A stretch of 64,000 bases of DNA from an uncultured Elusimicrobium sp. (GTDB lineage: Bacteria; Elusimicrobiota; Elusimicrobia; Elusimicrobiales; Elusimicrobiaceae). The position numbers and the translations under genes were made by a program. The notes under the pieces were generated by a model, which was not told where the DNA came from, ran no database searches, and saw only the letters and a list, made by a program, of their open reading frames with translations. The stretch is from positions 62,001-126,000 of the forward strand of contig CADBRU010000009.1 of NCBI GenBank assembly GCA_902797165.1, read 5' to 3'. Shown one piece after another: positions 53,316 through 53,770 of the stretch (position 1 is the first letter of the stretch; each line of letters begins with the position of its first letter).

Positions 53316-53618
53316 TGCTATTACAAACAAAAAACCTGCTTTTCAGCAGGTTTATATTTTTACCGGGGAAAGATATTTATTCCAGCAAGTATTTTTCAAA
53401 GGATTTTAAGAAGAAAAATTTACCGGGGAAGGGGGACTTCCCTGCGGTCAATTTCTTGACAGAAATTGCCTCCGGGCCGGCCCTCGCGGTTTTTGCCTTT
53501 CGCCATTACCGTGGCTCAAACAAAAACATTGCTCCGGGCTTCAAGTCCCTACGCACATAAAGCAGTTTATGTGCTTCCTGTAAAAACAAAAACCTGCTTT
53601 TTAGCAGGTTTATATTTT
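53316..53618. repeat. Structured, gene-free segment with duplicated tRNA-Leu 3' ends
   Basis: About 300 bases without a gene. A 42-base block (hairpin AACCTGCTTTT-AGCAGGTTT plus TATATTTTTACCGGGGAA) at 53329-53370 recurs at 53588-53628, where it forms the tRNA-Leu 3' end and terminator; a third 15-base piece (TTTACCGGGGAAGGG) is at about 53419. Between them are stem-loops GGGAAG/CTTCCC (53426-53442), CAATTTCT/AGAAATTG (53449-53468), GCACATAAA/TTTATGTGC (53553-53574), and a GGGCCGGCCC palindrome (53474-53483). The interior is GC-richer than its surroundings. It may be an integration scar or a small mobile or structured-RNA element. Confidence 0.65.
53585..53613 (-). terminator. Terminator after tRNA-Leu
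   Basis: AAACCTGCT/AGCAGGTTT stem with T run on the - strand, directly after the tRNA; a second copy of this hairpin is at 53329-53354 and probably ends the GT32 transcript. Confidence 0.8.
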
Positions 53619-53702
53619 TACCGGGGAAGGGACTTGAACCCTTAAGCCCGAATGGGCAATAGTTTTTGAGACTATCCTGTATACCAATTCCAGCACCCCG
53701 GC
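53619..53702 (-). tRNA. tRNA-Leu (CAA)
   Basis: 84 bases on the - strand: acceptor GCCGGGG/CCCCGGT (one G-T pair), long variable arm (TGCCCATTCGGGCTTA), anticodon loop CTCAAAA with anticodon CAA, T-loop TTCAAGT, discriminator A. CCA is not encoded. Its 3' end is partly duplicated upstream of it in the window. Confidence 0.95.
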
Positions 53703-53770
53703 ATGAAATCGTATATCTTATTATAGCATATTTCGTTTTTTCGTAACAATGTCGCGATAGGTAGATTATT

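What the first reader, a model, noticed from the sequence alone, without database searches (positions are those of the whole stretch)
53316..53702. Stem-loop-rich segment between duplicated tRNA-Leu 3' ends
A 42-base direct repeat made of the tRNA-Leu 3' end and its terminator flanks a 217-base GC-richer stretch with three perfect hairpins and a GGGCCGGCCC palindrome; a third tRNA 3' fragment lies inside. Duplicated tRNA ends are a mark of site-specific integration, but no integrase remains. The interior may be a non-autonomous element or structured RNA.
Basis: partly seen in the sequence, partly recalled or inferred. Interest (0 to 1): 0.7.

Follow-up and report, generated by a model that had tools for sequence, protein, structure and literature searches.

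The report
Guide-bearing mobile element at tRNA ends
Gut bacteria of the Elusimicrobiota, and some Patescibacteria, carry hundreds of tiny gene-less mobile elements that slip in behind tRNA genes, each holding a short antisense copy of the very tRNA it sits in, which looks like a built-in, re-programmable address label for choosing its insertion site.

Summary
On the minus strand, 53440-53635 is a ~196-bp unit: a replacement 3' end for tRNA-Leu(CAA) from T-loop position 57, a terminator, a 7-nt anti-acceptor segment, a hairpin, a 10-nt guide (exact reverse complement of this tRNA's T-arm), and a conserved structured core. The displaced native tRNA 3' end follows at 53420-53439. The core recurs at six tRNAs of this genome, in 58 of 66 species of the genus, in 20 of 90 sampled genera of the phylum, and in Patescibacteria. 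In 107 elements the guide and the anti-acceptor match the neighbouring tRNA far better than other tRNAs (z 21 and 14.6), across 29 anticodons. Orthologous tRNAs without the element exist, and the sequence behind the displaced copy is the native one. Near-identical cores (98%) sit at different tRNAs with switched guides. There is no gene inside, no Rfam match, and no reverse transcriptase, IS110 or Y1 transposase in this genome. I read it as a non-autonomous integrative element that finds its tRNA by base-pairing and borrows an unidentified recombinase. Mobility and guide matching are well supported; the enzyme, and whether RNA or folded ssDNA acts, are unknown.

The parts
53618..53703 (-). tRNA-Leu(CAA), the host gene; its 3' end from position 57 (53635) on is supplied by the element
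   Evidence: ARAGORN, Rfam RF00005; element-borne 3' end shown at other tRNA loci of the family
53440..53635 (-). mobile unit (57 to 57), about 196 bp; family median 200 bp, range 162-235
   Evidence: sharp right junction at tRNA position 57 in 100 elements
53580..53617 (-). trailer with intrinsic terminator (stem 53590-53611, T tail)
53574..53580 (-). anti-acceptor segment CAGGAAG, antisense to the acceptor 3' strand of the same tRNA (weak here, z 14.6 in the family)
53553..53574 (-). hairpin 1, GCACATAAA-CTGC-TTTATGTGC; loop CTGC conserved, stem varies but stays paired
   Evidence: 64 distinct arm pairs, 97% paired, permuted 64%
53540..53549 (-). guide GGGACTTGAA, exact reverse complement of T-arm TTCAAGTCCC of this tRNA
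53440..53539 (-). conserved core (GGAGCAATGTTTTTGTTTGAG...CGAAAGGCAAAAACCGCGAG...), with long helix 53518-53527/53489-53498
53449..53468 (-). hairpin 2, CAATTTCT-GTCA-AGAAATTG; loop GTCA conserved, stem covaries
   Evidence: 49 distinct arm pairs, 97% paired, permuted 68%
53420..53439 (-). displaced native tRNA-Leu 3' end (AAGTCCCCCTTCCCCGGTAA)
   Evidence: the following sequence resembles the empty site of relative G006
53372..53419 (-). native-type downstream sequence (aaatttttcttcttaaaat...), as behind the empty tRNA-Leu of G006
53325..53370 (-). older third copy of tRNA 3' end plus terminator, relic of an earlier event

Best explanation
It is a non-autonomous integrative element of about 200 bp that lives at tRNA 3' ends. 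Integration exchanges sequence at the T-loop. The element brings a new tRNA 3' end (position 57 on) and a terminator, so the tRNA stays functional, and the native 3' end is pushed downstream. Each copy carries two short antisense segments (anti-acceptor and guide, either side of hairpin 1) that match its own tRNA, and its right end carries the sense copy. The guide can therefore pair both with the target T-arm and with the element's own end. I infer that this pairing, in an RNA transcript or in folded single-stranded DNA, chooses the tRNA and aligns the two sites, and that a recombinase supplied in trans cuts and joins. Shown: mobility, borders, empty sites, guide-tRNA matching, guide switching on a constant core, conserved structure. 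Inferred: that the pairing acts in target choice, a circular or folded intermediate, and the trans-acting enzyme.
For: Dispersed copies, each just behind a different tRNA in the same orientation. Guide versus own tRNA z 21.2 and anti-acceptor z 14.6 in 107 elements, including odd T-loops such as TTTGACTCCC in L066 and TGCAAGTCCTG in L109. 29 anticodons. Cores 98% identical at tRNA-Met and tRNA-Val with different guides, each matching its own tRNA (L286/L139). Right junction sharp at position 57 (identity 2-3% at 54-55, 70% or more from 57). Occupied/empty pairs: in L117 versus L022/L078/L084 the displaced copy keeps CCA, native terminator and the next gene, while the element-borne tRNA end lacks CCA; L286 versus L133 likewise keeps the native trailer behind the displaced copy. 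Sporadic occupation of orthologous tRNA-Leu and tRNA-Gln, the latter by different subtypes. Tandem units. Compensatory changes in 21 of 35 pairs.
Against: No enzyme was found: no gene lies inside, and the own genome has only two tyrosine recombinases, which look Xer-like from their high scores. The antisense segments could serve a cis fold rather than target choice. At tRNAs with G57 the guide is exact in only 33 of 67 cases, mostly through G opposite A58. No excised form has been seen, and the data are draft, mostly metagenomic assemblies without reads.
Confidence: 0.55

Rival explanations
1. A protein-guided satellite: a phage-type tyrosine integrase acting in trans recombines the T-loop site, and the antisense segments only let the single-stranded element fold into a double-stranded attachment site, as in integron cassettes or single-stranded phage DNA. 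Pairing is needed for shape, not for choosing the target.
For: The T-loop crossover with displaced native end is the classic outcome of tRNA-targeting integrases. G-U pairs are rare in the hairpins (8 of 576 positions in hairpin 1, 12 of 392 in hairpin 2), which fits DNA better than RNA. Mismatches sit at positions 57-58, next to the junction. The unit folds better than all shuffles as DNA.
Against: One integrase family would have to serve 29 anticodons. A conserved tandem U-G pair in the core helix (27 of 27) looks RNA-like. Only two Xer-like tyrosine recombinases, no phage-type one, were found in the own genome.
Confidence: 0.25
2. An RNA-mediated retroelement: a tRNA read-through transcript is reverse transcribed at a nick in the T-loop, primed by pairing of its 3' end.
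For: The element lies in the tRNA transcription unit; about 18 direct repeats end at the end of the terminator; conserved RNA-like fold.
Against: Reverse transcriptase (PF00078) is absent from the own genome and found in only 2 of 25 genomes of the genus. Left trailers often differ from right ones, which a simple target duplication does not give.
Confidence: 0.08
3. A host regulatory RNA in the tRNA trailer that controls tRNA maturation by pairing with its 3' half.
For: Nearly always co-oriented with a tRNA, and the guide could sequester the T-arm and acceptor.
Against: Sporadic presence at orthologous tRNAs, different subtypes at the same tRNA, duplicated tRNA ends, tandem arrays and patchy spread across two phyla.
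Confidence: 0.08
4. A degenerate attachment-site remnant or duplicated terminators of no further meaning.
For: The window locus also holds an older relic copy.
Against: Hundreds of conserved copies with compensatory structure and matched guides.
Confidence: 0.02

Closest known systems
tRNA-targeting genomic islands and prophages (tyrosine integrase, T-loop sublocation)
   Same: Exchange inside the tRNA, element-borne 3' end, displaced native 3' end as direct repeat
   Different: 200 bp, no integrase, 29 anticodons for one family, an inverted copy of the target inside the element
IS110/IS1111 with bridge RNA (seekRNA)
   Same: Idea of a structured RNA from the element's non-coding end with re-programmable guides
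   Different: No IS110 gene in the own genome or any of 25 genus genomes; here the target's whole 3' end is replaced and displaced
Integron attC cassettes and single-stranded phage attP (CTXphi-like)
   Same: Folded single strand would form the recombination site; mismatches near the exchange point
   Different: Target is the T-arm of many tRNAs; the fold includes a complete conserved core; no dedicated integrase found
Group I and group II introns
   Same: Internal guide pairing with the flank; compact structured RNA
   Different: No Rfam match (a true group I intron was detected beside one element in L109), no reverse transcriptase in the own genome, nothing to splice because the tRNA is intact
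MITE/REP-type palindromic repeats with Y1 transposase
   Same: Short, gene-less, hairpin-rich, dispersed
   Different: Strict tRNA targeting with matched antisense; Y1 gene absent from the own genome

Membership tests
tRNA-targeting integrative element | Direct repeat of the tRNA 3' end, element-borne copy upstream, native copy displaced | tested here: met
tRNA-targeting integrative element | Own integrase gene | tested here: not met
   no gene inside about 200 bp; own genome has two tyrosine recombinases, Xer-like by score
tRNA-targeting integrative element | One or few tRNA targets per family | tested here: not met
   29 anticodons
IS110 bridge-RNA element | DEDD IS110 transposase | tested here: not met
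   0 of 25 genus genomes, controls positive
IS110 bridge-RNA element | Guides for target and donor in separate loops | tested here: inconclusive
   one guide can pair with both the tRNA and the element's own end; no second loop recognised
Group II intron / retroelement | Reverse transcriptase | tested here: not met
   absent in own genome, present in only 2 of 25 genus genomes
Group I intron | Conserved catalytic core | tested here: not met
   no RF00028 match to the element, while a neighbouring true intron scored 71 bits
IS200/IS605-derived (Y1) element | Y1 transposase available | tested here: not met
   absent in own genome, 3 of 25 in genus
Integron cassette attC | Integron integrase and R/L boxes | not tested
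   no integron-specific model was run; only the general integrase family was searched
Known Rfam RNA family | Match above gathering score | tested here: not met

The most novel reading that the evidence does not exclude
A new class of gene-less mobile element whose insertion site is set by a short antisense guide carried in the element, re-programmed from tRNA to tRNA on a constant core, working through an unknown recombinase.
Probability: 0.5. Interest if true: 0.95.

Novelty: categorically new. Interest (0 to 1): 0.85.

Why it matters
If the guide chooses the target, nature has another base-pairing-guided DNA integration system beside CRISPR-associated transposons and bridge RNAs, in an extremely small package with hundreds of natural guide-target pairs to learn the rules from. 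Even if it does not, the family shows a new way for a tiny selfish element to live harmlessly in tRNA genes, and it explains repeats that break genome assemblies in this phylum. It makes a sharp test possible: change ten guide bases and see whether the target changes.

Tried and rejected
Phage, plasmid and viral collections: no match in annotated phages or plasmids; the strict pattern found nothing in IMG/VR; two loose hits (L331, L332) are chance matches inside coding sequence, and a third (L333) is a real array but sits beside ordinary host genes. Search for an autonomous copy with a gene inside: unpaired left or right halves were fetched and none showed a gene inside the unit. Integrases near elements: the G011 island (L254) enters tRNA-Val near the anticodon, not the T-loop, so its integrase is not an obvious helper. 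Reverse transcriptase, IS110 and Y1 families tested and set aside. A pure target-site-duplication model was considered (about 18 repeats end at the terminator end) but set aside because left trailers are often unrelated to right ones and the element-borne tRNA end in L117 lacks the CCA that the displaced copy keeps. RNA versus DNA could not be settled: rare G-U pairs speak for DNA, an invariant tandem U-G for RNA. Literature: four searches found no description; the library lacks most subscription journals and preprints.

Full report
WHAT IS THERE. tRNA-Leu(CAA) lies at 53618-53703 on the minus strand. The reported direct repeat is real: 46 nt, 93% identical, 53325-53370 and 53583-53628, with a third tRNA 3' fragment at 53419-53433. 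Read on the tRNA strand, the order is: tRNA; terminator (53580-53617); a short segment CAGGAAG; hairpin 1 with loop CTGC (53553-53574); GGGACTTGAA (53540-53549); a conserved core ending in hairpin 2 with loop GTCA (53449-53468) and CAGGG; then AAGTCCCCCTTCCCCGGTAA, a second tRNA 3' end (53420-53439); then sequence like that behind the empty tRNA-Leu of a close relative; then the older outer repeat. GGGACTTGAA is the exact reverse complement of TTCAAGTCCC, the T-arm of this tRNA. The stretch 53440-53638 folds with z -7.8 as RNA and -8.5 as DNA.

IT IS A FAMILY. The interior matches five other places in the same 1.31-Mb assembly, and all six copies lie directly behind different tRNA genes in the same orientation: Leu-CAA, Arg-CCG, Thr-CGT, Leu-GAG, Cys-GCA, Gln-TTG. 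Core patterns occur in 53 and 58 of 66 species of the genus, with no control match. A covariance model built from 27 copies finds it in 110 of 295 genomes and 20 of 90 genera sampled across the phylum, patchily. A pattern scan of named genomes hits Elusimicrobiaceae and Elusimicrobiales, many from guts and rumens, and also Patescibacteria such as Kaiserbacteria and Paceibacterota. Of 83 copies examined from that scan, 72 had a detected tRNA upstream on the same strand; several of the rest begin at contig ends.

THE GUIDE. In 104 elements the stretch before the core was complementary to the own tRNA at 9.30 of 10 positions on average, against 7.76 (sd 0.08) when tRNAs were permuted. With a second set of 107 elements, the guide gave z 21.2, and the segment before hairpin 1 (against the acceptor strand) gave z 14.6. 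Unusual T-loops are followed faithfully: TTTGACTCCC of a tRNA-Ala has GGGAGTCAAA (L066), and TGCAAGTCCTG in a Kaiserbacteria has CAGGACTTGCA (L109). The elements counted serve 29 anticodons. Patescibacteria variants without hairpin 1 carry instead a guide against the acceptor end, for example GGACACGAA/TTCGTGTCC in L122. The guide is exact in 39 of 40 cases when position 57 is A, but in only 33 of 67 when it is G, mostly because G replaces T opposite A58; I cannot explain this.

GUIDE SWITCHING ON A CONSTANT CORE. Pairs of elements at different tRNAs share nearly identical cores but have different guides, each matching its own tRNA: L286 (tRNA-Met) and L139 (tRNA-Val) are 98% identical in the core; L149 (Val) and L126 (Leu) 97%.

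BORDERS AND EMPTY SITES. Aligning the right-hand copy with tRNA numbering in 100 elements gives identity of 2-3% at positions 54-55 and at least 70% from position 57 on, most often with GGC, GGG or GGA before it; the unit (57 to 57) has a median of 200 bp, range 162-235. Which copy is native? In L117 (tRNA-Gln) the right copy keeps GGAACCA, the gattta terminator and the next gene as in the empty orthologues L022, L078 and L084, while the left copy attached to the tRNA lacks CCA and has a different trailer. L286 versus the empty L133 shows the native trailer behind the displaced copy too. So the element supplies the tRNA 3' end and terminator, and displaces the native ones. At the tRNA-Leu(CAA) of the window, most orthologues recovered are empty. 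At tRNA-Gln behind ispE-spoVG most are empty, and the occupied ones carry different subtypes. Tandem units are common: 31 of 113 direct repeats run on into a second element, and L044, L084 and L090 hold two copies at regular spacing.

STRUCTURE. In 64 distinct hairpin-1 arm pairs 97% of positions pair (permuted 64%), and in 49 distinct hairpin-2 arm pairs 97% (permuted 68%), with constant loops. RNAalifold on 27 copies gives 35 pairs, 21 with two-sided compensatory change. G-U pairs are rare (8 of 576 positions in hairpin 1), which hints at selection on folded DNA; two adjacent U-G pairs in the core helix are invariant in 27 of 27, which hints at RNA. This stays open.

NO ENZYME YET. No gene lies inside. 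Reverse transcriptase is absent from this genome and found in only 2 of 25 genus genomes; IS110 is absent from all 25; Y1 transposase is absent from this genome and 22 of 25. The own genome has two tyrosine recombinases, Xer-like by their high scores. A 13.5-kb island with a tyrosine integrase in G011 enters tRNA-Val near the anticodon and is flanked by elements of this family, so it shares the neighbourhood but not the exchange point. Rfam has no match, phage and plasmid collections none.

READING. The facts shown (dispersal, empty sites, element-borne and displaced tRNA ends, tandem units, patchy spread) make it a mobile element. The inverted copy of each target, switched on a constant core, is best explained if pairing between guide and tRNA aligns or selects the target. 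Because the element's right end bears the same bases as the target (57 to about 63), one guide can pair with both, which would bring donor and target together. That last step, the physical form of the guide, and the enzyme are inference. A pure folding role of the antisense segments with a protein integrase is the main rival.

LIMITS. All genomes are draft assemblies, mostly metagenomic; repeats of this kind sit at contig ends (for example G067:C3). Serine recombinases and DDE transposases were not searched. Literature was searched in an open-access library only. The statements about IS110 bridge RNAs, integron attC, CTXphi and integrase sublocations rest on general knowledge, not on papers read here.

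Noticed in passing
L014, L054, L062, L068, L095, L110: A second kind of element carries an extra highly structured domain of about 260 nt between guide and core (TGGGTTGGCAAGG...CCTTGCCAACCC), with large compensatory changes in L110.
   Followed up: partly
L122, L083, L115: Patescibacteria variants lack hairpin 1 and carry a guide against the tRNA acceptor end instead of the T-arm.
   Followed up: partly
L109 4426-4660: A Kaiserbacteria tRNA has both a group I intron (RF00028) and an element at its 3' end whose guide matches its odd T-loop.
   Followed up: partly
L254 5754-20000: A 13.5-kb island with a tyrosine integrase and a Fic protein sits in tRNA-Val of G011, entering near the anticodon, with an element at each end.
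   Followed up: partly
L041, L079, L110, L186: Some elements lack the tRNA and are preceded instead by a shared motif CAAACTACAC with a small hairpin before it.
   Followed up: no
L157 and L253 (G006): tRNA trailers of the form TTCTTCTTAAAA...TTTTTCTTTGAAAA recur behind different tRNAs in G006 and may be another dispersed element.
   Followed up: no
L012, L013, L022, L026, L323: Displaced copies often run on into a truncated second element; in several cases (L013, L323) it breaks off at the loop of hairpin 1, as if that loop were a break point.
   Followed up: partly
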